Of a stretch of 64,000 nt of DNA, positions 28,951 to 49,263 are shown piece after piece. Made by a program: the position numbers and the translations under genes. Location: positions 62,001 through 126,000 of the forward strand of contig MKTC01000040.1 in the NCBI GenBank assembly GCA_001897535.1, written 5' to 3'. The notes beneath the pieces were generated by a model that ran no database searches, had not been told where the DNA came from, and saw nothing but the letters and a program-made list of their open reading frames with translations. The DNA comes from Bacteroidetes bacterium 37-13 (lineage in GTDB: Bacteria; Bacteroidota; Bacteroidia; Chitinophagales; LD1). The first letter of the stretch is position 1. The number at the start of each line of letters is the position of its first letter.

Positions 28951-30078
28951 TTAAGGCTTTAGTATTTTTACTTTTAGTAAGCTGTTTGTAGTTTTAATAT
29001 TGGCAAAATAAATTCCGCTCGGCCACCTGCTTGTGTTTATTTCTTGTTCTTTTCCGGCATAAACAATATTGCCGATAGTATTGAAAATGCTAATGTTCTC
29101 TACTGGATCACTTGTGTTTGTCTTTAATTTATCTGTAAAGGGATTGGGTGAAATTTTAATAAAACTTTCATCTTGAATGGTGGTTCTTATTCCTGTTTGT
29201 GTGTTTAACTTATGGCGTTTAAAGAAGTTCCAAATTTCTGTGCTGGCATTAAAGTCTCTATTGGTATTGCCATTGCCAATATCAATTAAGCCCGATGGCC
29301 AGGTGTGCCCGCCATTCAATATTTTATAGAAATATACTTCAGAATTATCGGCACAATTCCGGAAGCGAATAAGCTGGGCTGTGCTGCTATCAGTGGTGTT
29401 TATATCGAGAATATTGATTGTGTCTGATATGGGTAAGCAGTCGTTTGTGTCTTTCCAAAACTGCAAACAAGTTTCAATACTCATGCCGGTAAAATTTCCC
29501 TGTCCGGCATTTATACCACCGGTTTGGTAATTTACAATGGGGTCTGCCGTGCCGTGAATTTGCATTACGGGCATTTTATGTTCTATGGCACAATGTTGCA
29601 AATCCCAAGCACTCAGCGAACCTGTAACAGATGCAATAGCTGCAATTTTATTGCTGAGGTGGCAAGCTAAAGAGTAGCTCATAAAACCGCCATTGCTCAT
29701 GCCGCAACTATAAACAGAACTTCTATCAATAGAGTAATCTCTGGATAATTTTTCTATGAGAGAATCAATAAACTTTATATCGTTGGCACCATAGTTAAAA
29801 GCATTCCAATAATTAGAAACACCATTGGGGTAAACTACAATAAAATTATTGGAATCTGCCGTAGCATTCATTTGTGTATAAAGCATTTGCTGCGAAGCAT
29901 CGGAGGTGTAGCCATGTAAATTAAACACCAAAGGATATTGTGCAGAAGCTGTGTATGAGGCAGGTAAGTGTATAATGTAGGTTCGTGTTACATTATCAAT
30001 AAAAATACTGCCATTTATGGTTTGTGCAAAATTGCCAATGGTAATGGCAGTTAGTAAAAATGTAAATAGACTTTTCAT
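28951..30078 (-). CDS. Secreted PHB-depolymerase/feruloyl-esterase-type hydrolase with T9SS domain
   Basis: A 375-residue alpha/beta hydrolase of the LpqC / esterase PHB family. After a signal peptide (MKSLFTFLLTAITIGNFAQ) come NLHGYTSD (oxyanion region, residues 53-60), the nucleophile elbow YSCGMSNGGFM with Ser128, IHGTADPIVNYQ with the likely catalytic Asp, and NGGHTWPSG with the catalytic His. Such enzymes release ferulate or acetyl groups from plant xylan, or cleave polyhydroxyalkanoates; which applies here cannot be told. The C-terminus (ISPNPFTDKLK, IFNTIGNIVYAG, SGIYFANIKT) is a T9SS type A sorting domain, so the enzyme is exported to the surface. It is 46 bp upstream of the helical-repeat gene on the same strand. 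Confidence 0.88.
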   Translation of the reverse strand: MKSLFTFLLTAITIGNFAQTINGSIFIDNVTRTYIIHLPASYTASAQYPLVFNLHGYTSDASQQMLYTQMNATADSNNFIVVYPNGVSNYWNAFNYGANDIKFIDSLIEKLSRDYSIDRSSVYSCGMSNGGFMSYSLACHLSNKIAAIASVTGSLSAWDLQHCAIEHKMPVMQIHGTADPIVNYQTGGINAGQGNFTGMSIETCLQFWKDTNDCLPISDTINILDINTTDSSTAQLIRFRNCADNSEVYFYKILNGGHTWPSGLIDIGNGNTNRDFNASTEIWNFFKRHKLNTQTGIRTTIQDESFIKISPNPFTDKLKTNTSDPVENISIFNTIGNIVYAGKEQEINTSRWPSGIYFANIKTTNSLLKVKILKP

Positions 30079-30440: not shown

Positions 30441-33400
30441 ATGAAAAAACTATTCTTTGCTATAGTTTGCCTCGTTGCGATATTACAATCGTTTGCACAA
30501 AACACGGTAGTTGTTAATACGCAAGTTATTCCGCCTTATTCGCCATACATCAGCACGTATGTTGATAATCCAAACAAGCTCATTTTAACGCTTACCAATA
30601 CTTCGGCACAGCAGCAAAATGTAAAACTTTGGGTTCGTATTTCTGGAGATAATGGCGTAAGTGGAACTACGACCAACGGCTTTAAACCTTTTAGTCCAAT
30701 TGTTTTGTCGCCATACCAAACCAAAGTAATAGATTTTAGCAGTGCAGAAACTAAATCCTATTTTGATGCTAATAATGTAACTTTAGTAGGTATTACTAAA
30801 GCGCAACTAATACAAAACCAAGCATTGCCCGAAGGCGCATATACTATTTGTGTAAAGGCTTTGGATTACAATACCTCTCAGCCGCTTTCTGTTGATGGGC
30901 AAGGCTGTTCAGCACCGTTTTTAGTAAGTTATATAGATCCTTGTATGCTTACTCAGCCATTGTGCAATGGTGATGTAACACAGACTGAACCACAAAATAT
31001 TTTGTTCACTTGGACACCACCGGCTACCGCTCCGGGTAACTTACAATACGAGTTTACGCTTAAAGAAGTTCCCAATAATTTAAACCCCAACGATGTTATT
31101 AAAAATGCTGCTTTCCCTGTGGTTTATTCATACACCGGCACAGCCATCAATTCGTTGTTATATACTAATGCACTGCCACAATTAACTGCAGCTAAAAAAT
31201 ATGTATGGCGCATAAAATGTATAGACCCAACTAATACTGTTCAATTTAAAAATAATGGTTACAGCCAGCCTTGCACTTTTAATTATAAGGCTAAAGCCGC
31301 AGCACCAAACTTTAATATAGACCCAACAGTAAACGCTCCTTCTTCAACGCAAAACAAAGGCGGCTCTGGATACAATCCAGTAAGCACACCTAACCAAGGA
31401 AATATTTATCTGCCGCCAATAGTACAGCTTGCTAATGTAAATGGACAATTAGTTTACAACTGGCAGAGCGGTGCAAACAAGAATTATCCTATGACTTTTG
31501 CTACCATACGCTTAGTAGTTAAACATTTCTTGTTAAGTGGTTTAGACACACTTCCTGCTTATACTTCAATATGCTACGATGGAATTTGCGATGGTGCAGA
31601 AATTGCAGTAACAAAAACAGATGCCAATGGAAATTTCAACTTTAGTTTTGCATCTGCATTTCCTTTTGGAAAAATAGCAGATAAGCATACTTCTGGAAGT
31701 GGAGAATTTAAAAGCACAGGAACACTTTATCGCCAAGCGGTGATTGAAATACTTTATCCCCACAACCAATACTACCATGACCCAACACAAAAAATATTGC
31801 CCATACCGGGCGAAAGCGTGAATGTCGGCATAGTAACTTCAGCCGTAAAAACATGTAAATTAGAAGTAACAGTAGTGCGAAAAGGCGGTGTTGGCAATCA
31901 GCTATACGGCACATCTAATAATACTTTGCCCGATGCCAAGGTTTACTTATGCAGAAAACCAATTTCTATTTTTGCTCAAAATTCTTTTCCGAAAGACGAT
32001 GGATTGCCCAAAAAAGTCATTGTAATATCCCCTGGGTCAAGCTCTAAAAATGATAAGCCTGAGGCATTAAGTGCGGTGGAAGTTGTGGCACAAACTAAAA
32101 GTAAGAGTAATGGAAAGGTTGTGTTTGAACGTGTGGCACTACACAATAATTCCAATTATCAATATTTCATTTATGCCGATTTTGATAAAACTGCAACAGG
32201 ATTTTATAATTATACTTCGGTAAATGGCCCCGAAAAGTTTAAAAAAGAAGTGCCTCCGGGAGGATTTAATATTTCGAATGGTGTAGGAGAAACTTATGTG
32301 CAAACGCTCACTATGAATCCGGAACCACCCAGAATTGCAGGTGTAGTAATTGATAAATTTGATGGAAAGCCTAAAAGTGGACTTATTACTTTAAATAGTA
32401 TTTATGTGTCAAGCGGAGGCAAAACTGTTTTAACATCAATAGGTAGTACTCAAGCAGAATATGATGCTGCTGAGTATTTCTATTCTTGTGCATCTTTTTG
32501 TGCAAGGAAAGTAACCCGCTCATTTTACAGAGGAAACTCAGGAGAGTTTGAGTTTAATAAACTCGCTGTGTTATACGATTTGAACGAAAAGAAGATTACA
32601 GGTCCGCTTCATTTACTTACAGCAAAAGCACCGGGCTACGATGATAAAAATCATGGAATATCGGAAATTCTTTACTACGGCTCACAACATTATGCCGAAC
32701 TAAAATTAGACCGAGGTGGTGAAATAGCAGGCAGAATAGTAGATGGAGAAACAGGCAAAGGACTGGCTGCCAACTTTTATTTTATAGATGAGAACAAGTC
32801 GGACAAATGCAATAGCAGCGGCTATTTTAGTGGCTACCCGGCACGCAAATTAACAACTAAGCAGAAGCTGATTATTTCTTATCCGGGATATATTACAGAT
32901 ACTGCGGAAGTATTGGTAGATAAAGAAAAAACAGATTTGGGAACTTTGAAAATCTATACGCTCAACAGAAGACTAACAGTGAGTGTAAGCGATGAAAAAA
33001 CAGGAAAATCTATTGAAAATGCTAGTGTTGAAATTTTAGGTGTAACAACCACTTGCAAAGCTAAAAGTGGGCAATTTAATATTGTGAGCCAATGCCCTTT
33101 AATGGAAAAAACCAAAAAACTCTATAGCTTTTTAGGTATAGATATAGCTACTGCGTCTTTCAGTTTTAAAAATGCAGGCGGGCAAGAAAATAACGGGCAA
33201 ATTTATAAAGTTAGAATAACCGGACCAGACAGCAGCAACTACGAAAGCACAACTATATCTACCGCTATTCCATATTCTTCAAAAAGTAAAACACTACAAG
33301 TAAAATTAAAACCTGCCACTTGTATTGCCGGCTATGTTTATGCAGGCAAAGGAAACACTTCTCCAGTGCAGGGCGCAAGGGTGAAAATGGATGTTACAGC

Positions 33401-36224
33401 GCCTGCGGGATATTCTTTTTATTATGGGCAGCAATATGCTAAAACCAGTGAAGTAGAAGCGATAAGCGATGCCAATGGTTATTATGAATTAAAGAACGTG
33501 CCACTGCGCGATTATCCGCAAATTGTTCGCGCCATGAAAGGCAGTGCCGATTTGGTGGGTGATAGTTTTGTGATTGTTACACAGCCCTCCAACAATTCTT
33601 CGTATTACAATTTTAGTGGTGGAAGCTACAAGCCGGGCGGCAATTATGGTAATATGAATTTTAATGCCAATTCTCTTATACCGGGTTCTCAAAAGAGTTC
33701 GTGTATAAAACACGATTTTAACTTAACTGTTTACAATGGTTTAGACTTGAGCAGCTTAATGGGATTTCCTATTGAAGTAAGTTCTCTGAAACCTAATGGA
33801 ACAAATGGCGCAATTATTACGGGGCAATTTGTTTCGCTCAATGGTAACGATCAATTTAACTCAAAGCCGAATAGTTCTTTACAATTTAAAAACATAAAAG
33901 TGTTGCCGAGTGCTACAATTAAAAATGACAAAGGCATTCCCGCAGCTGCTCCCGAAAGTACACCAATTACCACCGAAAACAATATGCTGCCACTGCTGCT
34001 TTACAATAGTGTAGATGGCATGGTGGAAGACAAAAAATTAGGGATTTATTTAGATAAAGATGTGGGCGGAAAACAGTATGGCGTAATTAAAGGAAAAGTA
34101 AAAATACTGAACACGGCATTCAACCAAAGTGTTATTGCATTTGGTGATACTTTCTATTTAGCGCTGCCCAACGAAACATCTATTTCTAAATTGATTATTC
34201 CGGTTATCAATGCCGATAAAACAATTAAAAATCCGGCTATTGCACCTTCGGGTTTTAAAATTGCAAACAGCGTAGGCTATCCTGTAAAGTTTTCTTTGCC
34301 GGGCTTTGCCAATAGTGTGCTGAGTGATTATGATGCCACTACTTTTTTCAATGGAGAACTCAATCTTACTGCACGCATTCAAACCGATATTAAAGATATA
34401 ACACCCTCAAATTTAAACATTGCACTTTCAAATATTAAACTAAGAAAAGGAACAAACCCAAGCATCAACAGCAGCACGCCTATTTCTTTTAATATGGGCA
34501 ACTGGAAGTTGAGCAGCAGCGATTTTGTGTTAGATGAAAATGGATTAAAACTCAATAAAGGAACGATTGATGCAGGAGTGAGTGTTCCTTTCAAAAATTT
34601 AGGTATCCGATATAACCAATTATTTAGCAATGCGACTGAAGTACAATTAGATGAAATGAAATTAGCCGAAATGCATCCTGTAAATATTGTTTCTACCAAT
34701 AAAACTTTTGGTTTAATAGATGTTGCAGGAGGAAAAAAAGCATGGCAAATTTATGCAGGTCCCACACCAGATGTGGCGGCTACTATTTCTAATTTGCCGG
34801 CACTCAATTCTACCGATAAAATAGAGTTGAGCAGTATAAGATTACTGAGCAATGGTGAGCAACGTTTAGCACTCCGTGCCAAGCCGGTTACACTTCGGAA
34901 TCTCTTAAAATTTACTCCTTTAGATGCTACTTATATCAGTGCTTCAGCTAATCAATTTTTAATTACAGGGTTATTTCAATTAAAGCTACCTGATCCCAAA
35001 AGCTTTTCTACCACTTTGATGTATGAGCGTAGTGGAAACAGTTTGAATTTTAGCATGGTGAATACTGAAATTGTTTCGTTTAATAAACCTACACAATTAG
35101 CCCATAAATTTGACGCTAAGCCAACACTCACCAATGGTAAATTCACTTACAATGGCACGAGCGAAGAAGCGGGCACTTTCCCTGCAACCAAAACTACTTT
35201 GTATTATACAAACGACTCTGTGAGTGTTTGGATAGATGGCGGACAAGATATACCAATAAGCGGTGCACGTAAGTTTGGCAAAGCCGAAGGTGGAATGCGC
35301 ATTGAAGCCAACAACTGGACACCGTTTTGGTTTAGTGGCGATATGGAAGGAATGGCGGGAATTTCTGATGTTCAGGTTGGCGGAAAAAAACAACGCATGA
35401 AATTTTTTGTGCAAGGTGAAGTAACTGCCGATGCACAAAGCCTGAGCGTAAAAAATGTGGAAACACCTTTTGGTGATATGACATGGACATACAAATTCCC
35501 TGAAAGCAGATTGATTGGATATTTGGGTATAGATATGAATTTGAATGCTATGCACCTTAGCGGAAACCTTAACACTATTGTAGATGGCAGCGGTTGGTTT
35601 TTTGGTATAGATGGAAATTTAAAAGTAACAGGCGTAGGCGATTTAGGATTTATGGGAATATTTGGTGATTATCCTCAATACCCCCCGGGAATAAAACTTA
35701 ATATGGGAGATTTTAAATGTCTGCCACCTGCTTTTAATAATAAAGTAAATGGCTTCTTATTCCAAGCCGGAATTCATAAGCAGGTAGTACCGGAAATAAA
35801 TATGGGTATTCCGGGTTTGCTAACAATAGGTTTTGGTGTAGATATTGGACTAAATACCCGATTTTGGAAGTCCTTTGGAGAAAACAATAACCAGTTAGGG
35901 CTTTCATTGCTGGCACGTGGGCATGCTTTTGCAAAAGGAGATTGTGAAGTTACCTGCTCCAGTGTTGAGGCAAATGCTAATGCAGAAGTGAGCATTAGCG
36001 GCACTTACAATGGCACCAACGGAGAATACAATATTAACGGCTGTAGCAGCGTAGGTTTTAGCCTTGAAGCGCAGCAATGCCTTGGTGCTTTAGGTCTATG
36101 TTCTAGTACTTGTGCCGGCATTAGGACAGGCGATATAAACGTAGGTATAAATTTGAATTACAATAGCAATAAAGGCGCAGATATAGGTATTCAGTTTAGC
36201 AGTTGCAGTTCAAGTTGTAAATAA
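30441..36224 (+). CDS. Giant multidomain secreted protein, unknown function
   Basis: A 1927-residue protein with signal peptide MKKLFFAIVCLVAILQSFAQ; an ORF start at 30378 (TTG) would precede it and is rejected. Residues about 21-165 form an Ig-like domain (NTQVIPPYSPYISTYVDNP, ISGDNGV), followed by an Fn3-like domain (ILFTWTPPA, KYVWRIKCIDP). A chain of carboxypeptidase-regulatory/SpaA-like domains follows (LPDAKVYLC, GVVIDKFDGKPKSG, EIAGRIVDGETGKGLAA, TVSVSDEKTGKSIENASV, AGYVYAGKGNTSPVQGARV). About 750 residues of beta-rich sequence with repeated GSGWFFGIDGNLKVTGVGDLG-type strands come next, then a cysteine-rich end (final residues SSCSSSCK). There is no T9SS sorting domain. The start resembles Bacteroidota proteins annotated with a TANFOR domain, a recollection I cannot verify. 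It is the first gene of a tight three-gene cluster. Confidence 0.75.
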   Translation: MKKLFFAIVCLVAILQSFAQNTVVVNTQVIPPYSPYISTYVDNPNKLILTLTNTSAQQQNVKLWVRISGDNGVSGTTTNGFKPFSPIVLSPYQTKVIDFSSAETKSYFDANNVTLVGITKAQLIQNQALPEGAYTICVKALDYNTSQPLSVDGQGCSAPFLVSYIDPCMLTQPLCNGDVTQTEPQNILFTWTPPATAPGNLQYEFTLKEVPNNLNPNDVIKNAAFPVVYSYTGTAINSLLYTNALPQLTAAKKYVWRIKCIDPTNTVQFKNNGYSQPCTFNYKAKAAAPNFNIDPTVNAPSSTQNKGGSGYNPVSTPNQGNIYLPPIVQLANVNGQLVYNWQSGANKNYPMTFATIRLVVKHFLLSGLDTLPAYTSICYDGICDGAEIAVTKTDANGNFNFSFASAFPFGKIADKHTSGSGEFKSTGTLYRQAVIEILYPHNQYYHDPTQKILPIPGESVNVGIVTSAVKTCKLEVTVVRKGGVGNQLYGTSNNTLPDAKVYLCRKPISIFAQNSFPKDDGLPKKVIVISPGSSSKNDKPEALSAVEVVAQTKSKSNGKVVFERVALHNNSNYQYFIYADFDKTATGFYNYTSVNGPEKFKKEVPPGGFNISNGVGETYVQTLTMNPEPPRIAGVVIDKFDGKPKSGLITLNSIYVSSGGKTVLTSIGSTQAEYDAAEYFYSCASFCARKVTRSFYRGNSGEFEFNKLAVLYDLNEKKITGPLHLLTAKAPGYDDKNHGISEILYYGSQHYAELKLDRGGEIAGRIVDGETGKGLAANFYFIDENKSDKCNSSGYFSGYPARKLTTKQKLIISYPGYITDTAEVLVDKEKTDLGTLKIYTLNRRLTVSVSDEKTGKSIENASVEILGVTTTCKAKSGQFNIVSQCPLMEKTKKLYSFLGIDIATASFSFKNAGGQENNGQIYKVRITGPDSSNYESTTISTAIPYSSKSKTLQVKLKPATCIAGYVYAGKGNTSPVQGARVKMDVTAPAGYSFYYGQQYAKTSEVEAISDANGYYELKNVPLRDYPQIVRAMKGSADLVGDSFVIVTQPSNNSSYYNFSGGSYKPGGNYGNMNFNANSLIPGSQKSSCIKHDFNLTVYNGLDLSSLMGFPIEVSSLKPNGTNGAIITGQFVSLNGNDQFNSKPNSSLQFKNIKVLPSATIKNDKGIPAAAPESTPITTENNMLPLLLYNSVDGMVEDKKLGIYLDKDVGGKQYGVIKGKVKILNTAFNQSVIAFGDTFYLALPNETSISKLIIPVINADKTIKNPAIAPSGFKIANSVGYPVKFSLPGFANSVLSDYDATTFFNGELNLTARIQTDIKDITPSNLNIALSNIKLRKGTNPSINSSTPISFNMGNWKLSSSDFVLDENGLKLNKGTIDAGVSVPFKNLGIRYNQLFSNATEVQLDEMKLAEMHPVNIVSTNKTFGLIDVAGGKKAWQIYAGPTPDVAATISNLPALNSTDKIELSSIRLLSNGEQRLALRAKPVTLRNLLKFTPLDATYISASANQFLITGLFQLKLPDPKSFSTTLMYERSGNSLNFSMVNTEIVSFNKPTQLAHKFDAKPTLTNGKFTYNGTSEEAGTFPATKTTLYYTNDSVSVWIDGGQDIPISGARKFGKAEGGMRIEANNWTPFWFSGDMEGMAGISDVQVGGKKQRMKFFVQGEVTADAQSLSVKNVETPFGDMTWTYKFPESRLIGYLGIDMNLNAMHLSGNLNTIVDGSGWFFGIDGNLKVTGVGDLGFMGIFGDYPQYPPGIKLNMGDFKCLPPAFNNKVNGFLFQAGIHKQVVPEINMGIPGLLTIGFGVDIGLNTRFWKSFGENNNQLGLSLLARGHAFAKGDCEVTCSSVEANANAEVSISGTYNGTNGEYNINGCSSVGFSLEAQQCLGALGLCSSTCAGIRTGDINVGINLNYNSNKGADIGIQFSSCSSSCK

Positions 36225-36239
36225 TAAAATACTAAAGAG

Positions 36240-38195
36240 ATGAAAATGAAAAATTGCATAATATCAATAGCTGTTTTACTCATTAGTATCAGCATTTCAG
36301 CACAAGAAGAATTTGCATTTGCAGCACCAAAAGGCATTTTTGTGTATTTAGGAAAAAATATTCCCAACGGTAAAAAAATAAGTTCTATTCTACTAAGCAG
36401 AAAAGATGAGAAAGGAAACTTTAAAAAATTAGCTGAAGTAAAATGTGCAGCCACCGAACAGGAATTTATGAGCGAAGCAAAAGATGCCGCCAAGTATTTT
36501 CCCGATTTCAGTTTTGCGCCCGATTCCTCTCTAAAATCGGTGTGGTTGCGTGCTTCTAAATACGGCACATTAGATTCTGCCGGCTATTGGGCAATGCACC
36601 CTGCGGTGCGCATGGCATTAGGTATTTTATACTACGATTTAGATGCAAAAGAGAATACGAAATACAGTTACAAGTTTGATAATTATACTTCTACCGAAGT
36701 GAGTTATCCATTTCACCCAAAATACGATGATGTGAGTTTATCTGAATATCAATACGATAAAAATGGTTTATACATCCGCTTTAAATCTGTTGGAAGAAAC
36801 CCCTCAAAAGCATTTAAGTTATATAAATACAACGATGATAAAAAGCCCGAAGAAGTAAGTGGCATCCGCAATCAATACAAGATAAAAGATACTACTTTTT
36901 ATATCATTAACGACACCAAAGTAACCGCAGCCAAGCAATACCAATACTCTTGGATTGGTGTAGATGTGTATGGAAACACCAGCTATGGTAGTTTGCCTTT
37001 TATTATTGATTTACGCGACTTTAGTACGGTTTATTTTAAGCGCATAAAAGCTAAAAAGGCAGATGCCATGTTGGCTATCAATTTGAATTGGAATATCAGC
37101 GATGTAACAAACGTGAAGAGTATTCACATTTTCAAAAGCGATAATTATGATAAGGGATTTAAAGAGATTGGCGTAATGGAAGCAGCCGACACTTCGTTTA
37201 CCGATGAGAGCATTATTCCAGATAAGATTTATTACTACTATTTACAAATAGCAGATAAAACAAACACGCTTACTAAAAACTCTGCAAAATTCTTCGATTT
37301 CGGCTTCGACAAAAGCACACCAATCACACCTATTTTGAAGAATGCAGTAGGTATAGCTAATGGCATAAAATTAGAACTTGCTGTTCCCGATAATTTTATT
37401 GCAGGTTACAGGGTTTTTAGAAGCGAAAACGGCAGCGATGACTATACTGTAATTGCTGATATGGTGAAATTAAATCCGGATTCAAACACGGCTACTTATT
37501 ACGATACAGGCGCAACTATGAACGGCAGAACTTTTTACAACTATAAAATTCAAAGTGAAAATACTTCTCATGCAGTGAGCGAATTATCAAATAAACTCCA
37601 AGCACGTCCGGAAATGAGCGCTAAGGTTATTGCACCTACTAATTTGTCGGTTTATTTTCAAGATTCAGTTATCAATTTATTTTGGAACGATATACGCAAA
37701 GACGATGAAATGGTGGCAGGTTACCGCCTGTATAAAAGAGAAAAAGGTGCCGCTAAGTTTACTTCAATATTTTCCGAAGATTCTGTGTATGAAGGCAACC
37801 GTTTTATTGATGCAATATACAGTGCGGGAAAAACTTATGAATATGCAGTAGAAAGCGTTGATTTGTTTGGCTACGCAAGCGATAGCCGCGCTTCGGCACA
37901 AGTAAGTATTGATAAATATTTGCCGGCAGCACCAGCTATAAGCAGCGCTATCAACCTACCCGATGGTATTTTAATTGAATGGAGCAAGCCGAATATATCC
38001 AACTTGAAAGGATATAAACTATACCGATATCAGCGCGGACAAAACCCTGTTGCCATTGCACAGCCTAATGCCGATGCAGAAAACTATTTAGACAAAACAG
38101 CTAAACCCGGAGAATTGTATTTCTACACACTAACCTCTTTAAACAGCGAAGGTACTGAAAGCACAGAGAGTGAAGAGGCAGGAGTTCGACACTAA
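36240..38195 (+). CDS. Secreted fibronectin type III-repeat protein
   Basis: A 651-residue secreted protein (signal peptide KNCIISIAVLLISISISAQ). The N-terminal 130 residues lack an obvious domain. From about residue 155 four to five Fn3-like beta sandwiches follow, recognisable by repeated G-Y-x-x-Y/F-R and D-x-x-x-x-x-G-x-x-Y-x-Y patterns (IAGYRVFRSENGSDDYT, VAGYRLYKREKGAAKF, GKTYEYAVESVDLFGYAS, KGYKLYRYQRGQNPV, ELYFYTLTSLNSEG). It ends without a sorting domain. It starts 15 bp after the giant protein gene and ends 20 bp before the barrel gene, so the three are one operon. Its role is unknown; Fn3 arrays usually serve as spacers or binding modules. Confidence 0.8.
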   Translation: MKMKNCIISIAVLLISISISAQEEFAFAAPKGIFVYLGKNIPNGKKISSILLSRKDEKGNFKKLAEVKCAATEQEFMSEAKDAAKYFPDFSFAPDSSLKSVWLRASKYGTLDSAGYWAMHPAVRMALGILYYDLDAKENTKYSYKFDNYTSTEVSYPFHPKYDDVSLSEYQYDKNGLYIRFKSVGRNPSKAFKLYKYNDDKKPEEVSGIRNQYKIKDTTFYIINDTKVTAAKQYQYSWIGVDVYGNTSYGSLPFIIDLRDFSTVYFKRIKAKKADAMLAINLNWNISDVTNVKSIHIFKSDNYDKGFKEIGVMEAADTSFTDESIIPDKIYYYYLQIADKTNTLTKNSAKFFDFGFDKSTPITPILKNAVGIANGIKLELAVPDNFIAGYRVFRSENGSDDYTVIADMVKLNPDSNTATYYDTGATMNGRTFYNYKIQSENTSHAVSELSNKLQARPEMSAKVIAPTNLSVYFQDSVINLFWNDIRKDDEMVAGYRLYKREKGAAKFTSIFSEDSVYEGNRFIDAIYSAGKTYEYAVESVDLFGYASDSRASAQVSIDKYLPAAPAISSAINLPDGILIEWSKPNISNLKGYKLYRYQRGQNPVAIAQPNADAENYLDKTAKPGELYFYTLTSLNSEGTESTESEEAGVRH

Positions 38196-38214
38196 ACAAA
38201 TACAAGTTGCCTAT

Positions 38215-39927
38215 ATGGTAAATTTTATGACACAAAAGGGCATAAAAAAATGGAAAATATATTTGGCAGCAATGGTTTTGCTTTGTTTAAGCCATGTTGC
38301 ATTATTGGCACAAGACTTAGAAAATATTACCAAGCAAAAACCTTTTGAGATACACGGAGCCATAAGTTTAAGCGGAGGCTACTACAAGGGTTCTGGTTTT
38401 AACAGCACCCGCAAGCCTTATACTTATTCACTAATGGCAGCACCCACAGTTTCAATTTATGGCGTTCAAATTCCGTTTAATATTACATTAACCGAAGGTA
38501 GCAATTCGCTCAAAAACCCATTTGCGCAATTTGGTGTAAACCCTTATTGGAAATGGATAAAAGGCTATCTGTGCTGGACAAATATGAATTGGACTCCAAC
38601 TACTTTAGGTGGAAAAACTTTTCTTGGTGTTGGCTTAGAAATTAACCCTTCTTTATTTCGCTTTGGCGGCTTTTGGGGAAGGCTAAACCCCGCAGTAAAA
38701 GAAAACCTATTAGGTACAGAACCTATTCAACCACAATACAAACGCTTTGGTTGGGGTTTAAAAATTGGCGTAGGAAACGAGAAAAATTACTTCGATTTTA
38801 TTTGGCTCTACGGCAAAGACCAAAATGCTTCTATTCCTAATCCCGTAGATACACTAAACCAATTAAATTACACACCGGCACAAAATGCCATCATTGGTTT
38901 TAAGAGCCACCAAACATTTGTAAAAGGAAAGTTTATTTGGGATTTAGATGGTGCAATAAGTGCTTACACGCGCAATACCAATTCGCAACTTTTGGATATA
39001 GGAAATGGTTTCGGCACCAAGTTTTTGAAAGTAGCATTTCCTCCACGCCTAAGCAGTAGTTTTGCTTGGAGTTTACACAATAATTTTACTTACAAAACAG
39101 ATAATCTTACTCTTGGTTTTGACTATAACCGTATTGAACCGGAATATCAAAGCATGGGTGTAGATTACATTTTAAACGACCAAGAAAAGATTACGCTCAA
39201 CCAAGTTTTTTATGCAGGGAAAAAGAAATGGAGTTTTAGCTTTAATGAATTTTACCAGCACGATAATTTGAATAAGCGCAAAGCACTGCGCACGCATCGC
39301 ACCGGCTTGAGTGCTAATGCTAATTGGCAGTTAAATCAAAAATTTGGAGCCACTTTTTCTTACAACAACTTTTTCATGTTCCAATCAAAAGGGTTAAAGC
39401 AAGTAAACGATTCTACCAAAGTGGCACAGTTGCAAAATACCTTTCTGCTAAGTCCGCGCTACATGATTTTAAACACCAAAATGGTTCATGTTATTTTTGC
39501 GGCAATTACATACACTCGTTTAGACGACCTCAATAAATTTACCGAAAAATTTACTCGTAACAATACTATAAACACCAATATCGGATACACACTTTCGCAC
39601 ATAAAATCGGGCTTTGGTTTTTCTCCGAGTTTTAATGTAATGTATTCTAAATCTCCTTCTTTTGATGTGCTAAATATTACACCTGCAGCAGCTTTCAACA
39701 AATCGTTTTGGAAAGGAAAAATCAATACTTCGCTTATGATTGGCTACACAGCTTCACGCCAAAATAAATTGTGGAACAGCCACACTATAAATAACACTAT
39801 TGGCATTGGATATAATATTACCACACACCACGCGCTTAAATTCGACAATAGCATGATGTACACCCGCGGGCAAATACTTGCCACTCAAGAATACAAAGGT
39901 GCGCTCACTTATACTTATACGTTTTAA
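38215..39927 (+). CDS. Outer-membrane beta-barrel protein, third gene of the cluster
   Basis: A 570-residue protein. The start is placed at ATG 38215 (MVNFMTQKGIKKWKIYLAAM); ATG 38227 is equally possible, and the longer GTG-initiated frame from 38170 overlapping the previous gene is unlikely. A signal peptide ends ALLAQDLE. The rest is alternating beta strands and turns (HGAISLSGGYYKGSGF, SVYGVQ-like IYGVQIPFNITLTEG, FLGVGLEINPSLFRFGGFWG, FSYNNFFMF, IGYNITTHHALKFD) ending with aromatic strand GALTYTYTF, a typical barrel C-terminus. It could anchor or export the two preceding secreted proteins; that is inference from the operon. Confidence 0.78.
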   Translation: MVNFMTQKGIKKWKIYLAAMVLLCLSHVALLAQDLENITKQKPFEIHGAISLSGGYYKGSGFNSTRKPYTYSLMAAPTVSIYGVQIPFNITLTEGSNSLKNPFAQFGVNPYWKWIKGYLCWTNMNWTPTTLGGKTFLGVGLEINPSLFRFGGFWGRLNPAVKENLLGTEPIQPQYKRFGWGLKIGVGNEKNYFDFIWLYGKDQNASIPNPVDTLNQLNYTPAQNAIIGFKSHQTFVKGKFIWDLDGAISAYTRNTNSQLLDIGNGFGTKFLKVAFPPRLSSSFAWSLHNNFTYKTDNLTLGFDYNRIEPEYQSMGVDYILNDQEKITLNQVFYAGKKKWSFSFNEFYQHDNLNKRKALRTHRTGLSANANWQLNQKFGATFSYNNFFMFQSKGLKQVNDSTKVAQLQNTFLLSPRYMILNTKMVHVIFAAITYTRLDDLNKFTEKFTRNNTINTNIGYTLSHIKSGFGFSPSFNVMYSKSPSFDVLNITPAAAFNKSFWKGKINTSLMIGYTASRQNKLWNSHTINNTIGIGYNITTHHALKFDNSMMYTRGQILATQEYKGALTYTYTF

Positions 39928-41017: not shown

Positions 41018-44000
41018 ATGGAATTTATCAGAGCCAAATTTTGGGCGCTTTTTATACTTGTTTGTTTTACTGCCAATGCACAGCAAACTACTTTTAGAAT
41101 TAACTACGACATTGCAAACTTCGATTTTGCATCTAAAACCGTAGAGTCGCTAACCCCGGGAAACATTATGCTTTGCGGTTGGAACACCAGCATTATTCCA
41201 ATTTATTCTTCATTAACTGAAGTAAATGGAAGTGGTAATGTACTGTGGTCTAAGCGTTATAGCGGAGGTATTTCGTATCAACTAAATGATATTAGAAAAG
41301 ATGCTGTTGCTAACCAATATTTTGCTTGTGGCGGCACAGGAAATGGCGTAGGTATTTTAATGGTTTTGAACAATGCGGGAACTCCTGTAATTACAAGAAA
41401 TTTCTCTCTTGCTCAAGCAGATGGCGTTTATTTTAACCGATTGATAAAAACTAGCGATGGCGGTTATGTGGTAGTTGGTTATGTGAATGGCTACGACCCG
41501 GATGGTGCAGGACCTGAAGTAAAGTTTTCTTCCATTACTTATGTTGATAACAATGGCGATAGCCAAACAGAAAGTATCGGCTCACCGATAATTGTAAAGT
41601 TTGATGCGAGTGGAAACCATTTGTGGCACCATGTGTTGCGCTATTACAAAACATCTGCAAAACTTGCTACCGATAGAATTTACAACGATGGTTCGCTAAA
41701 TGATGTAGTAGAAGTGAGTGATGGTTACATTGCAGTTGGTAACTATAAAGTGAATGACTTTCGTTCTGCCACTAATAGCGATGGAGATGATGCTACACCC
41801 TCTGATGCAATATTTTTAAAAACAACAACAGCTGGAGCTGTTACTTATCATCAACAAATTGATGCACCAAATACTTCTACTTCTCAAAAAAGTAAAACAT
41901 TAGCTTCGGCAAATAAAACAAGCACTGGCTTGCCGCTTATTGCGGGGAATGATGTAGATGGTGAGCCTGGAATTTTAATGCGTTTAGCAGCTTCGGGTGG
42001 TTGGGCTTCGCCATCATGGATTCAAAAATATTCTGTTGGTAATAGTTTTATTACAGGCTACACACCTTTTTTGCCAAATACTTTTTTTGAAACAGACGAT
42101 GGTAATTATGCTACTTGGGCGCAAATGATTCCATTTGGAATTCCACCGGCAATTTCATCTGCATTATTAAAAGTAACACCAACTGGTGGCATACTTTTTG
42201 GTAAGCAATATCAGGTAAGTACTTTTGCGCTTCTCCCAACAGGGCAGCAGCTTTCTGATAAAGGTTATGTGAGTTTATCGCTTGCAGGAGGCTTAACCAA
42301 TTTCGATTTGCAATTAGTAAAAGCAGACTCCGCAGGAAATGCTCCGGCAGCTTGTCCTCAAACGGATTTAAATCCAACTTCAAAAGTTCCTGGCTATTCT
42401 TATGCTGCTCCATATTACAACAGTTGGAATGCAAATACTGTTAGCAATACTTCTGCAACACCTACGGTTACCAATATAACTCCTGCACAAAATATTCTTT
42501 GTCGCACGGTGGTTTGTAATCCTAAGCCTGCCACACCAACCGTAACAGCAAATCCAAACCCTATTTGCGAAGGCAATTCAACTTTGTTGAGTGCTTCGGG
42601 TGGAAGTAATGTTACATACCGTTTTTACACAGTTCCAACCGGTGGCACAGCAATTGGTACAGGAACTTCATTATCAGTATCGCCAACTACAACTACAACT
42701 TACTATGTAGAAGCAGAAGATAACAGCAACCCGGGTTGTGTGAGCAATCGCGGAAGTGTAGTTGTAACAGTAAATAAATTGCCTGATAATATTGGAACAA
42801 TTACCGGAAATGTAGCTCCGTGTCCTAGTGCGCAAGGCTATGCTATTCCTACGGTGAATTATGCAACAGGCTACACTTGGTCTGTACCTGTGGCGGGTGG
42901 AAGTGTTACAAGTGGAGGGTCTTCAACCAATGCAACAATTACTTGGACAAATGCCGGAACTTATGTGGTTACGGTAACTGCAACAAACTCTTGTGGTACG
43001 AAGCAACAAACTTTATCGGTAACAGTGCAAAGTGGACCGCCAACTGGTATTGGTGCTATTGCAGGAAACTTAAATCCTTGCCCGGGAAGTGAAAATTATT
43101 CGGTTTCTCCAGTAGCAAATGCTACAAATTATGTGTGGAGTGTTTCAGGTGGCGGCAGCTTAACAGGCACGCAAGGTTCTGTGTCTAATACTGTAAACTG
43201 GACTACTCCGGGTGGACCTTATACCGTGAGTGTAACTGCAAGCAATTCTTGTGGCTCAGTTGGGCAATCTGCACAAGTAACAGTGAAGAATGCTAAACCT
43301 GTTATTAGCGGAACAATTATAGGCAACCAAAATCCATGTCCTGGCAATCAAAACTATTCTATTGTTGCTGTGCCAAATGCTACAAGTTATACTTGGGCAG
43401 TTTCCGGAGGTGGAAATGTTACACCTTCACAAAATAGTGCAAACATAAATTGGCTTACTTCTGGAACTTATACCGTGAGCGTAACAGCAGCCAACGATTG
43501 CGGAACTTCTACAGCTACTTTAACTGTAACCGTAAAAACAGCTCCGCCAACTTCAGTAAATGCCATTACAGGAAGCAATAATGTTTGCCCGGGAACTGAA
43601 ACGTATTCTATAACTCCTGTAACCGGAGCAACTGGCTACCAATGGAGTGTTTCTAATGGCGGAACCATTTCGCAAGGGCAAGGCACTACTTCAATAAATG
43701 TAAATTGGACTACTCCTGGCGGACCATATTCTGTGAGTGTTGTTGCCAGCAACGATTGCGGAAATGCTTCTAATACATTAAGTGTATTGGTGCAAAATCC
43801 TGCTCCGCTTCAGCCGGGTAAGATAACTGGCGACACCGTAGTGTGTGTAGGAAATGGAAACTATGCTATTGCTCCTGTAACGAATGCTACAAGCTACACT
43901 TGGGCAGTTTCGGGGGGTGGAACAATTACACAAGGTCAAGGTGCGTTAAACACAATCATAAATTGGACAGCCGCTGGAATATATACAGTTTCAGTTACGG

Positions 44001-46360
44001 CAACCAATAGTTGCGGCAACAGCACTGCGCGTGTTGTTACTGTAAAAGTAGAAAGTGGTGCCCCAACAGGTTTAGGAAATATTTTAGGCAATGCAGTAGT
44101 TTGTAAAGGAACAGCGACCTATAGCGTAACACCAATTTCCAGTGCCTCAAATTACAATTGGACAGTTGGCAATCCGGGCACAATCGTTTCAGGTCAAGGC
44201 ACTTCTTCTATCACTGTAAACTGGCCAAATGTTTCAGGAACTTTCCCAATTACGGTTTCTGCAAGTAATGTGTGCGGCACTTCTAATACGGCATCATTAA
44301 ATGTAGCAGTTTCGGATACCACACCTCCTGCTCCGGCAGTAATTACTGGCAATGCTTCTCCTTGTCCGGGAACTTTGGTTTATACCATTAGTTCAATTTC
44401 ACAAGCTACTTCTTATACTTGGACACTTTCAGGTGGTGGTTCAATTATTTCAGGTCAAGGAACTACTTCCGTAAATATTGATTGGACAACTGTTGGAGGA
44501 CCTTACACACTTTCTGTTTCAGCCGAAAACGTTTGCGGTTCGAGTGTTCAAACAAGTTTAACTATAAACGTATTAAACGGCAGCGCTCCGGTTGTGGGTG
44601 CAATTTCGGGCGATACTTTGCTTTGTCCTTCAACCAAAACGTATAGCATAGCAACAGTTTCAGGCGCTACGGGTTATGTGTGGAGTGTAACAGGTGGCGG
44701 CACAATCACTTCGGGTCAATCTACCACGAGCATTGATGTGAATTGGGCGCAAGCCGGTAGCGGTGTAGTGAGTGTAATTGCAAATGGTTCATGCAGCAAT
44801 AGCACTCCTGCAACTTTAAATGTAACAGTGAAGCCGGGTGCTCCTGCACAACCGGGAAATATTACTGGAACACAAGCTGTTTGCGGTGGTGTGAGCGAAA
44901 ATTACAGCATTGCAAGTGTACCGAATGCTACAAATTATGTTTGGGGAATTTCCAATGGTGGCATAATTATATCTGGTCAAGGTACAACAGGAATAAATAT
45001 CAACTGGGGCAATTCCACAGGCGCTTTCACCATTTCTGTTTATGCTGAAAATGATTGCGGACAAAGCGCAGTGCAAACTATTCAAGTAACTGTACAGCCA
45101 GGCACTCCAGTAATAAACACAGCTATTATTGGCGACACGGCAACTTGTCCGGTTCAGCAAGTGTATAGCATTGCAGCGGTTACTGATGCTACATCTTACA
45201 ATTGGACGTTAAGTTCCGGTGGCAATATTTTAATTGGACAAGGTACTACAAGTGTTACCGTAAATTGGACAAGCGCAGGCGTACATACATTGAGTGTAAC
45301 GGCAAGCAACAGTTGTGGAACTTCAGTTGCAGCAACCATCCAAGTGCGTGTGAATGTGGCTCCAACTGTGCCAACTGCCACAGCGCAAGATGCAACAATA
45401 TGCGAAGGCAGTTCTACGGTGCTTACAGGTAGCAATTCTTTAGGCGGAAATGTGAGCTATAATTTTTATGATGCAGAGGTTGGCGGAAACTTAGTTGGTG
45501 CAAGCCCACTTACCGTTTCTCCTACCATTACTACAACTTACTACCTTGAATCGGTGAATGAATTTGGTTGCCGCCACAGCGGTACACGCATTCCTGTTAC
45601 GGTAACGGTGGTTAATGCACCAAAAGTTTTAGAGGTGAAAGCTGAAAACGCTTCGGTGTGCTATGGCGATTCTACAGTGCTTACGGCAACTGCTTCAAAC
45701 GGAGCTACCATTACTTGGTGGGACGCGCCTCTCAATGGAAACCAAATAGGAACAGGCGCAACTTTAAACACAGGAAAACTTACTGAAACTACTTCATATT
45801 ATGCTTCGGCAACCAACTCAAGCGGTTGCAAAACTTTAGAAGCAAGAAAAGTAGTTACGGTTGAAATAAAACAACTTCCGGTAGTAGAACTTACCAGCGA
45901 TAAAGAAGAAAACAAAATTTTTCCGCAGGAGCGAATTGTGTTTACTGCCAATCCTTCGGGCTATGCCAACTATGAATTTTTCGTGAATGGAAAATCGGTT
46001 CAATCAGGTATTGAAAACGTTTATGCATCATCAAAATTAGGTGATAAAGATACAGTAGTTGTAGTTGCGCAAGACAACGGCTGCCGCAGTGTTGCCGATA
46101 CTGCAATTGTGCGCGTAGTAGATTTTCCAAACGCATTTACACCAAACACCGATGGCAAAAACGATGTGTTTTTGAAAGGCTACGACTTAGTAGTGTTGAA
46201 CCGTTGGGGACAAGAACTTTACAAAGGAATTGATGGTTGGGACGGCACTTTTAAAGGTAAAAAAGTTTCACCCGGAACTTATTTCTACATCGTGGAAATG
46301 GAAAGCATTACCGATAGAAAATCTATTGTGAAAGGAACTGTTTTATTGATTCAAGATTAA
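41018..46360 (+). CDS. Giant T9SS type B adhesin with ten PKD-like repeats
   Basis: A 1780-residue surface protein. A signal peptide (RAKFWALFILVCFTANAQ) is followed by about 460 residues resembling a propeller of SDGGYVVVGY-type blades (LIKTSDGGYVVVGYVNGYD, VEVSDGYIAVGNYK). An Ig-like domain ending near residue 586 is next, then ten tandem PKD-like domains (residues 587-1447, about 86 each) with the motif Y-x-W-x-V-S-x-G-G and N-W-T, closed by S/N-x-C-G. Two more Ig-like domains follow (ATICEGSSTVLTGSN; ASVCYGDSTVLTATA). The CHU_C type B sorting domain ends the protein: FPNAFTPNTDGKNDVFLKGY, LVVLNRWGQELYKG, GWDGTFKGKKVSPGTYFYIVE. Followed at 24 bp by a PorE-like gene and then porP/sprF-like, it resembles SprB-type adhesin loci. 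Confidence 0.92.
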   Translation: MEFIRAKFWALFILVCFTANAQQTTFRINYDIANFDFASKTVESLTPGNIMLCGWNTSIIPIYSSLTEVNGSGNVLWSKRYSGGISYQLNDIRKDAVANQYFACGGTGNGVGILMVLNNAGTPVITRNFSLAQADGVYFNRLIKTSDGGYVVVGYVNGYDPDGAGPEVKFSSITYVDNNGDSQTESIGSPIIVKFDASGNHLWHHVLRYYKTSAKLATDRIYNDGSLNDVVEVSDGYIAVGNYKVNDFRSATNSDGDDATPSDAIFLKTTTAGAVTYHQQIDAPNTSTSQKSKTLASANKTSTGLPLIAGNDVDGEPGILMRLAASGGWASPSWIQKYSVGNSFITGYTPFLPNTFFETDDGNYATWAQMIPFGIPPAISSALLKVTPTGGILFGKQYQVSTFALLPTGQQLSDKGYVSLSLAGGLTNFDLQLVKADSAGNAPAACPQTDLNPTSKVPGYSYAAPYYNSWNANTVSNTSATPTVTNITPAQNILCRTVVCNPKPATPTVTANPNPICEGNSTLLSASGGSNVTYRFYTVPTGGTAIGTGTSLSVSPTTTTTYYVEAEDNSNPGCVSNRGSVVVTVNKLPDNIGTITGNVAPCPSAQGYAIPTVNYATGYTWSVPVAGGSVTSGGSSTNATITWTNAGTYVVTVTATNSCGTKQQTLSVTVQSGPPTGIGAIAGNLNPCPGSENYSVSPVANATNYVWSVSGGGSLTGTQGSVSNTVNWTTPGGPYTVSVTASNSCGSVGQSAQVTVKNAKPVISGTIIGNQNPCPGNQNYSIVAVPNATSYTWAVSGGGNVTPSQNSANINWLTSGTYTVSVTAANDCGTSTATLTVTVKTAPPTSVNAITGSNNVCPGTETYSITPVTGATGYQWSVSNGGTISQGQGTTSINVNWTTPGGPYSVSVVASNDCGNASNTLSVLVQNPAPLQPGKITGDTVVCVGNGNYAIAPVTNATSYTWAVSGGGTITQGQGALNTIINWTAAGIYTVSVTATNSCGNSTARVVTVKVESGAPTGLGNILGNAVVCKGTATYSVTPISSASNYNWTVGNPGTIVSGQGTSSITVNWPNVSGTFPITVSASNVCGTSNTASLNVAVSDTTPPAPAVITGNASPCPGTLVYTISSISQATSYTWTLSGGGSIISGQGTTSVNIDWTTVGGPYTLSVSAENVCGSSVQTSLTINVLNGSAPVVGAISGDTLLCPSTKTYSIATVSGATGYVWSVTGGGTITSGQSTTSIDVNWAQAGSGVVSVIANGSCSNSTPATLNVTVKPGAPAQPGNITGTQAVCGGVSENYSIASVPNATNYVWGISNGGIIISGQGTTGININWGNSTGAFTISVYAENDCGQSAVQTIQVTVQPGTPVINTAIIGDTATCPVQQVYSIAAVTDATSYNWTLSSGGNILIGQGTTSVTVNWTSAGVHTLSVTASNSCGTSVAATIQVRVNVAPTVPTATAQDATICEGSSTVLTGSNSLGGNVSYNFYDAEVGGNLVGASPLTVSPTITTTYYLESVNEFGCRHSGTRIPVTVTVVNAPKVLEVKAENASVCYGDSTVLTATASNGATITWWDAPLNGNQIGTGATLNTGKLTETTSYYASATNSSGCKTLEARKVVTVEIKQLPVVELTSDKEENKIFPQERIVFTANPSGYANYEFFVNGKSVQSGIENVYASSKLGDKDTVVVVAQDNGCRSVADTAIVRVVDFPNAFTPNTDGKNDVFLKGYDLVVLNRWGQELYKGIDGWDGTFKGKKVSPGTYFYIVEMESITDRKSIVKGTVLLIQD
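42776..45358 (+). repeat. Ten tandem PKD-like coding repeats in the adhesin gene
   Basis: 2583 bp encode ten consecutive domains of 83-88 residues. Each begins near a CPG/CPS cysteine motif and ends with an S/N-x-CG followed by a V-T-V strand. Units are clearly homologous at the protein level but diverged in DNA, and long identical DNA stretches are not apparent, so recent expansion is unlikely. Unit 6 (about 44063-44326) and unit 8 depart most from consensus, for example VGNPGTIVSG in place of the S-G-G-G turn in unit 6. Confidence 0.85.
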
Positions 46361-46384
46361 ACTAAAGACACACCTTTTTTAAAC

Positions 46385-48325: not shown

Positions 48326-48336
48326 TTAGTTAAGCA

Positions 48337-49263
48337 ATGAAGCATATTTTAAATAAAATTTTTGCAGCAACATTTGTACTGCTTTTTGCTGTTGGCGCAA
48401 GTGCGCAGAACGAAACTGTGATTGCACATTTTATGTATCACAGCCATGTGTTTAATCCGGCTGTGGCGGGCAATACGCGCGATATTTATATAAGCGCATT
48501 AGCACGCCAGCAGTGGGTTGGGTTTAAAGATGCACCATCAACACAACTTTTAGATGCTTACGGCTACGTGAAACAAATTCACGGTGGTGTTGGCTTGGTG
48601 GTAATGCACGATATGCTAGGTAAAGAGCGCAGCATTTCTGCCCGCGTTTCTTATGCTTATTCGCAACGCTTGGCAGGTGGCAAAGCATATCTTTCTGCCG
48701 GAGTAAGCTTAGGCTTTTTAAATCGCTCTGTTCGCGGCTCTGAGTTAGTGTATCAGCAATCTTCAGACCAGAGCGGGATTTACGATAACACAAGTAAATG
48801 GAAGCCTTATTTTGCTATGGGAATTGAGTTTACGGGCTGGAATGCAACAGTAGGTTTTGCAGTTACGCATTTAGACCAATCGCAGAAAGATGCAACCGTA
48901 TTTAAAGTGCCGCGCCACTACATGGCTTATGCAAAATATAATTGGGATATAAACGAAAAGTTTAGCCTTACTCCAGGAATTTTTGTGCGCAGCAGTGTGT
49001 TTATTACACAAGCAGAAGTGAATATTAACGCCACTTTTCGCAAGCGTATTGTGGCAGGTTTAATTTATAGGAGCAACGATGCCGGAGGAGCTTTGTTGGG
49101 CGTTCATATTTGGAAAGGATTGTTTGCCAGCTACTCTTACGATTTCAATTTTGGTCGCTTAATGAACTCCCAAACCGGATCGCACGAAATAAATTTAAGC
49201 TATACCATAAAGCAAAAAACACCTAAGCGCCCATTCTACAAATCGCAAAGGTATATGAACTAA
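48337..49263 (+). CDS. PorP/SprF family type IX secretion outer-membrane protein
   Basis: A 308-residue outer-membrane barrel protein with signal peptide ending VGASAQ. The N-terminus of the mature protein, IAHFMYHSHVFNPAVAGNTRDI, is the family hallmark (F-N-P-A-x-A-G), followed by ISALARQQWVGFKDAPSTQ. Barrel strands such as VSYAYSQRLAGGKAYLSAGV, FSLTPGIFVRSSVFI and the C-terminal LFASYSYDFNFGRLMNSQTGSHEINLSY (in pieces) complete it. SprF-type proteins are paired with type B sorting-domain adhesins and needed for their surface attachment. Here the likely client is the giant adhesin two genes upstream. It is separated by 11 bp from the PorE-like gene. Confidence 0.92.
   Translation: MKHILNKIFAATFVLLFAVGASAQNETVIAHFMYHSHVFNPAVAGNTRDIYISALARQQWVGFKDAPSTQLLDAYGYVKQIHGGVGLVVMHDMLGKERSISARVSYAYSQRLAGGKAYLSAGVSLGFLNRSVRGSELVYQQSSDQSGIYDNTSKWKPYFAMGIEFTGWNATVGFAVTHLDQSQKDATVFKVPRHYMAYAKYNWDINEKFSLTPGIFVRSSVFITQAEVNINATFRKRIVAGLIYRSNDAGGALLGVHIWKGLFASYSYDFNFGRLMNSQTGSHEINLSYTIKQKTPKRPFYKSQRYMN

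What the first reader, a model, noticed from the sequence alone, without database searches (positions are those of the whole stretch)
30441..39927. Uncharacterised three-gene surface cluster: 1927-residue multidomain protein, Fn3 protein and outer-membrane barrel
Three genes separated by 15 and 20 bp encode a giant secreted protein without a T9SS sorting domain, an Fn3-array protein and a barrel. The giant protein combines Ig/Fn3-like, five or more carboxypeptidase-regulatory-like domains, a very long beta-rich region and a cysteine-rich end. None carries a known catalytic motif. The tight order suggests one apparatus, with the barrel as anchor or exporter and the other two as its surface parts. 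It is distinct from the neighbouring T9SS adhesin module. This is the best candidate in the window for an undescribed system.
Basis: partly seen in the sequence, partly recalled or inferred. Interest (0 to 1): 0.62.

Follow-up and report, generated by a model that had tools for sequence, protein, structure and literature searches.

The report
Modular TANFOR surface-protein system with barrel
Three neighbouring genes encode a huge secreted protein, a helper protein and an outer-membrane pore that are kept together across Bacteroidota, and comparing many genomes suggests that a fixed docking-end-plus-pore unit carries exchangeable giant payloads, which gives a known but poorly understood bacterial weapon family a likely missing export or anchor partner.

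Summary
In detail: one tight three-gene unit (giant 30441-36224, Fn3-like 36240-38195, barrel 38215-39927), all apparently secretory, none with a T9SS sorting domain. 'One apparatus' is supported; 'undescribed' is half right. The giant's first ~300 residues are a divergent TANFOR module, the N-terminus of a published class of Bacteroidota polymorphic toxins (PMC7073777). That paper noted Fn3 neighbours but mentions no barrel. Across 296 genomes, 68 of 69 genomes with a clear barrel homologue also have the N-module; 98 of 119 N-module loci have a barrel within 20 kb; the two are fused in six proteins. In 90 complete systems two blocks co-vary: N-module with barrel (r 0.89) and giant body with Fn3 protein (r 0.84), cross-correlations about 0.4; near-identical N-modules and barrels carry unrelated bodies. 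I read this as a chassis (dock + 24-26-strand barrel) displaying exchangeable cargo (body + Fn3 protein). In Flavobacteriia-like relatives the chassis carries toxin-type proteins; the window's clade carries a conserved beta-rich body ending in an amphipathic barrel-like sheet, without toxin domain or immunity gene. Whether cargo crosses through this barrel or T9SS is open. New variant of a known kind.

The parts
30441..36224 (+). giant secreted protein, 1927 aa: signal-like stretch, TANFOR-type N-module, beta-rich body, Cys-rich end
   Evidence: homologues full length in L032-L035
30441..31340 (+). N-module (residues 1 to ~300), the conserved dock; TIGR02542 (TANFOR) match at residues 26-162 (30516-30926)
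   Evidence: boundary seen where related giants lose all similarity after ~res 300
32724..32933 (+). CarbopepD_reg_2 domain (PF13715), residues 762-831
   Evidence: 32.4 bits, cut-off 32.2
33327..33533 (+). CarboxypepD_reg-like domain (PF13620), residues 963-1031, just under cut-off
   Evidence: 29.8 bits, cut-off 32.3
33666..36221 (+). beta-rich C-terminal part of the body (residues 1076-1927)
   Evidence: alignment A3, AlphaFold2 model pLDDT 81.8, pTM 0.48
35439..36194 (+). amphipathic antiparallel, barrel-like sheet at the C-terminus (residues 1667-1918), Cys-rich at its end
   Evidence: VIA Z 14.1 to CymA, rmsd 8.6, 228 aligned; alternation z 6.5
36240..38195 (+). Fn3-type partner protein, 651 aa, inherited together with the giant's body
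38215..39927 (+). outer-membrane beta-barrel, 570 aa from ATG 38215 (or 566 from ATG 38227), 24-26 strands predicted; partner of the N-module

Best explanation
The three genes are a TANFOR-type surface display or export system made of two units. Chassis: the N-terminal ~300 residues of the giant (TANFOR module) and a large 24-26-strand outer-membrane barrel. Cargo: the rest of the giant and the Fn3-type protein. All three proteins are exported by Sec (inferred from signal-like N-termini), the barrel inserts in the outer membrane (inferred from the model), the N-module docks on the barrel and so carries or holds the giant at or through the outer membrane (inferred from co-occurrence, co-variation and fusions), and the Fn3-type protein binds the giant's body as its dedicated companion (inferred). 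The chassis is kept while whole cargo blocks are exchanged between lineages (shown by comparison). In this genome the cargo is a conserved beta-rich body that ends in an amphipathic sheet resembling a membrane barrel; it probably works at the surface or on a membrane and not as a nuclease-type toxin.
For: Co-occurrence in 296 phylum genomes: barrel at 100 bits or more in 69, N-module in 72, both in 68 (Fisher 6.6e-61, phylogeny not corrected). Adjacency: 98/119 N-module loci have a barrel within 20 kb, 87/99 barrels have an N-module, and several orphans of each kind fall in the same genomes. In 80 named loci fetched by barrel, 73 have an adjacent N-giant and 64 an Fn3-type gene. Co-variation in 90 systems: N-barrel r 0.89, Fn3-body 0.84, N-body 0.43, N-Fn3 0.38; partial N~barrel|body 0.87, Fn3~body|N 0.81, barrel~body|N 0.03. 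Of 176 pairs with N identity of 0.55 or more, 107 have unrelated bodies: barrel identity 0.69, Fn3 0.23; 62 have related bodies: barrel 0.70, Fn3 0.53. In 14 systems of the window's N-F-B order, where barrel and N-module lie about 6-8 kb apart, N-barrel is still 0.97 against 0.70 for N-Fn3. N-module fused to barrel in six ORFs. Barrel model pLDDT 87.8, nearest solved fold the 26-strand MtrB (Z 20.0, rmsd 5.5, 441 aligned).
Against: No contact between N-module and barrel is shown; co-variation could partly reflect vertical inheritance of the chassis while cargo moves horizontally as one contiguous DNA block. All 72 genomes with the system have the T9SS translocon SprA, so T9SS may do the transport. 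In window-clade members the body is conserved full length, so exchange is shown in relatives, not in this lineage, apart from L041. Secretion and surface location are not tested.
Confidence: 0.6

Rival explanations
1. The giant is a T9SS substrate that crosses the outer membrane through SprA by an N-terminal signal; the barrel only receives or anchors it at the surface, as PorP/SprF-type barrels are thought to serve type B substrates.
For: All 72 genomes with the N-module have SprA and none of 68 genomes without SprA has it. Jana et al. found that more than 95% of TANFOR genomes carry T9SS and proposed T9SS export. In a Flavobacteriia-like locus the cassette follows an SprB-repeat protein with a T9SS tail (L129).
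Against: No CTD in the window proteins or in some 20 tested giant C-termini. Most SprA-less genomes belong to one family, so the exclusion is weak evidence. A dedicated barrel would be redundant for crossing.
Confidence: 0.4
2. The window giant is itself an antibacterial polymorphic toxin of the TANFOR class with an unrecognised toxin tip.
For: N-module shared with toxin-tipped giants: in L123 an N-module 98% identical to its neighbour's heads a protein ending in a colicin-type DNase (PF21431, 6e-42). Flavobacteriia-like relatives have tips that differ plus a small gene downstream.
Against: In the window's clade identity stays 60-80% to the last residue with no variable tip; no toxin domain; no gene follows on the same strand, so no immunity gene in the operon.
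Confidence: 0.12
3. The cargo is an adhesin or biofilm protein and the C-terminal sheet is only a structural tip.
For: Carboxypeptidase-regulatory-like and Fn3-like domains are common in adhesins (established knowledge); no catalytic domain found; collagen-repeat protein upstream in Pedobacter.
Against: Long amphipathic 18-22-residue strands are unusual for an adhesin tip; no binding data.
Confidence: 0.3
4. The barrel is a nutrient porin or an MtrB-like electron conduit with surface binding proteins.
For: Best solved fold is MtrB of the Mtr complex.
Against: No CXXCH haem motif in the three proteins; fold similarity between large barrels shows no function; no Pfam family hit; cargo exchange would make no sense.
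Confidence: 0.04

Closest known systems
TANFOR-containing polymorphic toxins of Bacteroidetes (Jana, Salomon and Bosis 2020, PMC7073777)
   Same: N-terminal TANFOR module on a giant Sec-exported protein, Fn3 genes next door, exchange of the rest of the protein, T9SS-positive genomes, no CTD
   Different: Window member matches the TIGR02542 model below its cut-off, has no toxin tip and no immunity gene, and comes with a dedicated barrel, which the paper's main text does not mention; the conserved module is about 300 residues, and in many pairs the entire body, not only the tip, is replaced
T9SS type B adhesin plus PorP/SprF-type barrel (an example lies next door at 41018-49263)
   Same: Works alike in principle: a terminal recognition module on a giant surface protein matched to a neighbouring outer-membrane barrel
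   Different: Module is N-terminal, no CHU_C/CTD, and the barrel (570 aa, 24-26 strands) has no PF11751 match
MtrB of the Shewanella Mtr complex (6r2q)
   Same: Best-matching solved barrel fold, Z 20.0 over 441 residues
   Different: 12% identity, no haem partner, no MtrB family hit; fold only
Two-partner secretion (TpsA/TpsB) and chaperone-usher ushers
   Same: Secreted giant with its own outer-membrane barrel; usher folds appear in Foldseek list
   Different: No Omp85/POTRA, usher or TPS family match; N-module is not a TPS domain by any hit

Membership tests
TANFOR-containing polymorphic toxins | N-terminal TANFOR domain (TIGR02542) | tested here: inconclusive
   E 5e-9 (whole protein) to 2e-10, 36-41 bits, under the curated cut-off 67; 19 of 29 family N-modules match the model; none of 296 phylum genomes passes the cut-off
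TANFOR-containing polymorphic toxins | Sec signal peptide | tested here: met
   Hydrophobic N-terminus MKKLFFAIVCLVAILQSFAQ by reading the sequence; no predictor available
TANFOR-containing polymorphic toxins | Variable C-terminal toxin domain | tested here: not met
   No toxin family in Pfam or NCBIfam; C-terminus conserved within the clade
TANFOR-containing polymorphic toxins | Immunity gene immediately downstream | tested here: not met
   Giant is followed by Fn3-type gene and barrel, then an opposite-strand DUF218 gene
T9SS CTD substrates (type A or B) | C-terminal sorting domain (PF18962, PF13585, TIGR04183, TIGR04131) | tested here: not met
   No hit in giant, Fn3-type protein or barrel
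T9SS CTD substrates (type A or B) | T9SS present in the genome | tested here: met
   SprA over cut-off in the own genome G000 and in all 72 N-module genomes
PorP/SprF barrels | PF11751 / TIGR03519 match | tested here: not met
   No Pfam match; NCBIfam none relevant, while the neighbour 48337-49263 matches at 1e-54
Two-partner secretion | Omp85-type TpsB barrel with POTRA and TPS domain on the cargo | tested here: not met
   No such Pfam or NCBIfam match
MtrB electron conduits | Multihaem cytochrome partner | tested here: not met
   No CXXCH in the three proteins
TANFOR-barrel display system (this report) | Secretion of the giant depends on the barrel | not testable with these tools
   needs mutants

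The most novel reading that the evidence does not exclude
N-module plus barrel form a dedicated outer-membrane export route, independent of T9SS, that delivers exchangeable giant cargo (toxins in some lineages, membrane-active beta-rich bodies with Fn3 partners in others): a secretion system of its own.
Probability: 0.2. Interest if true: 0.85.

Novelty: new variant of a known kind. Interest (0 to 1): 0.62.

Why it matters
How TANFOR polymorphic toxins leave the cell has been open since they were described; T9SS was proposed from neighbourhood statistics only. An almost obligate barrel partner makes the question directly testable by one deletion, and the chassis/cargo split predicts which parts can be exchanged. 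It also shows that many members of the class carry giant beta-rich bodies with a Fn3-type companion and not nuclease-type toxins, and it offers names for hundreds of unannotated genes in Bacteroidota (369 barrel-bearing stretches in one scan).

Tried and rejected
TIGR02542 as a search model was too narrow (7 of 296 genomes, none over cut-off), so own profiles were built. Sequence search of the barrel and the N-module against solved structures gave nothing convincing: best barrel hit a fatty-acid transporter fragment at E 0.0015, best N-module hits above 0.05. The Fn3-type protein gave ubiquitin-fusion chains at 2e-10 over about 45 residues, which I take for a low-complexity or construct-related chance match. 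Foldseek of the giant's C-terminal model gives LptD and ushers at low E-values but TM about 0.1, so no global match; only its last ~260 residues align to barrels in the second look. No near match of the cluster on plasmids. Pfam on C-termini of about 18 giants found one clear toxin (L123) and one weak TNT (L133). The idea that the bodies of all systems are unrelated was rejected: profile comparison gives two superfamilies (window-type with c9, c8, c4; and c27 with c5 and others), only weakly alike at the C-terminus.

Full report
What is there. The reported cluster exists as written. Three genes on the + strand, 15 and 19 bp apart, encode a 1927-residue giant (30441-36224), a 651-residue Fn3-type protein (36240-38195) and a 570-residue barrel (38215-39927). 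Genes on both sides run the other way, so this is one unit with about 360 bp of upstream sequence. All three proteins begin with a signal-like stretch; none has a T9SS sorting domain. Pfam supports two, not five, carboxypeptidase-regulatory-like domains in the giant.

Identity of the giant's N-terminus. NCBIfam's TANFOR model TIGR02542 matches residues 26-162 at E 5e-9, below its curated cut-off. Of 29 homologous N-termini (alignment A2), 19 match the same model. TANFOR proteins were described in 2020 as polymorphic toxins of Bacteroidetes, with Fn3, SprB-repeat and T9SS-tail genes enriched next to them and T9SS export proposed (PMC7073777). The words barrel and porin do not occur in that paper, and no other TANFOR paper was found in the library. 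Supplements could not be read.

The barrel partner. In the order of the window's genome, barrel homologues occur in 47 of 198 genomes. Their surroundings hold the same N-module and usually the same Fn3-type gene, in the orders N-F-B (window and relatives) or B-N-F (most others). Over 296 genomes of the phylum, 69 have a barrel at 100 bits or more, 72 the N-module, 68 both (Fisher 6.6e-61, not corrected for relatedness). 98 of 119 N-module loci have a barrel within 20 kb, where chance would give about 1% (my estimate from a 4-Mb genome); 87 of 99 barrels have an N-module within 20 kb; several orphan barrels and orphan N-modules lie in the same genomes, as expected of split loci. A scan of named genomes gave 80 barrel loci (Pedobacter, Mucilaginibacter, Spirosoma, Larkinella, Dyadobacter, Runella, Ignavibacteria, Chitinophagales MAGs): 73 with N-giant, 64 with Fn3-type gene. 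In six ORFs of 871-1016 residues the N-module and the barrel are one protein.

Two blocks. Pairs of giants often keep 70-98% identity over the first ~300 residues and share nothing after that, for example L211/L226 (Spirosoma profusum and S. terrae), L199/L227 (Larkinella), L209/L235, and two tandem giants in L123. For 90 complete systems I compared pairwise similarity of N-module, barrel, Fn3-type protein and body. N-module with barrel: r 0.89. Fn3-type protein with body: 0.84. All cross pairs: 0.38-0.43. Partial correlations: N~barrel given body 0.87; Fn3~body given N 0.81; barrel~body given N 0.03. Among 176 pairs with N identity of 0.55 or more, where the body is unrelated (107 pairs) the barrel is still 0.69 identical and the Fn3-type protein 0.23, background level; where the body is related (62 pairs) the Fn3-type protein is 0.53. 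In the window's gene order, where body and Fn3 gene lie between N-module and barrel, N-barrel is 0.97 (14 systems), so simple physical linkage does not explain it; L041, a near relative in N-module and barrel (0.59-0.68 and 0.52-0.57 against L032-L035) with an unrelated body and Fn3 protein, is a case. Hence a conserved chassis (N-module, barrel) and exchangeable cargo (body, Fn3 protein). Vertical inheritance of the chassis with horizontal transfer of cargo as one block would also give this pattern; it supports modularity but does not prove contact.

Structures. The barrel model is confident (pLDDT 87.8) with 24-26 strands; the nearest solved fold is MtrB, 26 strands (Z 20.0, rmsd 5.5 over 441 residues), ahead of porins at Z 16. 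No haem motif occurs in the cluster, so MtrB is a fold match only. The giant's last 850 residues (pLDDT 81.8, pTM 0.48) match no solved fold globally; the last ~260 align to outer-membrane barrels such as CymA (Z 14.1, rmsd 8.6, 228 aligned) and their strands alternate polar and apolar residues far more than shuffled ones (z 6.5, against 2.6 for the real barrel). This suggests a membrane-active or barrel-like end, not proven. The bodies fall into two superfamilies by profile comparison, plus a few unassigned ones.

Toxins and T9SS. In L123 one giant ends in a colicin-type DNase. So the same chassis carries toxin-type cargo elsewhere. In the window's clade identity runs to the last residue and no gene follows on the same strand, so neither toxin tip nor immunity gene is seen. 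All 72 N-module genomes have SprA and none of 68 SprA-less genomes has the N-module, so T9SS involvement stays possible; most SprA-less genomes belong to one family, which weakens this.

Verdict. Shown: a conserved three-gene system, its TANFOR-type N-module, obligate-like barrel partner, fusion, and two co-inherited blocks. Inferred: docking of N-module on barrel, surface display, companion role of the Fn3 protein, membrane activity of the C-terminus. The system is a new variant of a known kind (TANFOR proteins); the barrel and the chassis/cargo division are, as far as the held literature shows, new.

Noticed in passing
41018-49263: Complete T9SS type B module: PKD/Ig-repeat giant with CHU_C tail, PorE-like OmpA protein, PorP/SprF barrel.
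   Followed up: partly
28951-30078: PHB-depolymerase-like esterase with a T9SS tail (Por_Secre_tail) on the minus strand next to the cluster.
   Followed up: no
L119:1039-3690, L120:2177-4558 and about 35 genomes: Widespread 790-930-residue proteins whose C-terminal half is a distant relative of the barrel; the two tested match no Pfam or NCBIfam family. Not tied to N-modules.
   Followed up: partly
L108, L111, L127 and others: N-module giants of 4000-6400 residues directly downstream of the barrel; the one tested (L108, 4137 aa) has no Pfam hit.
   Followed up: no
L123:4827-17298: Tandem giants with 98% identical N-modules, one with a colicin-type DNase tip; the barrel gene is cut short and followed by an ORF that looks by eye like a REP-type transposase.
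   Followed up: partly
L187:5747-9912, L186, L214: In Pedobacter a TPR histidine kinase and a collagen-repeat protein sit upstream of the cassette; in Spirosoma three similar ~640-residue ORFs, the one tested a TPR histidine kinase, and an S9 peptidase.
   Followed up: partly
L112, L115, L118: Loci with a fused N-module-barrel protein also hold further N-module proteins and an Fn3-type gene, so the barrel itself can carry a copy of the dock.
   Followed up: partly
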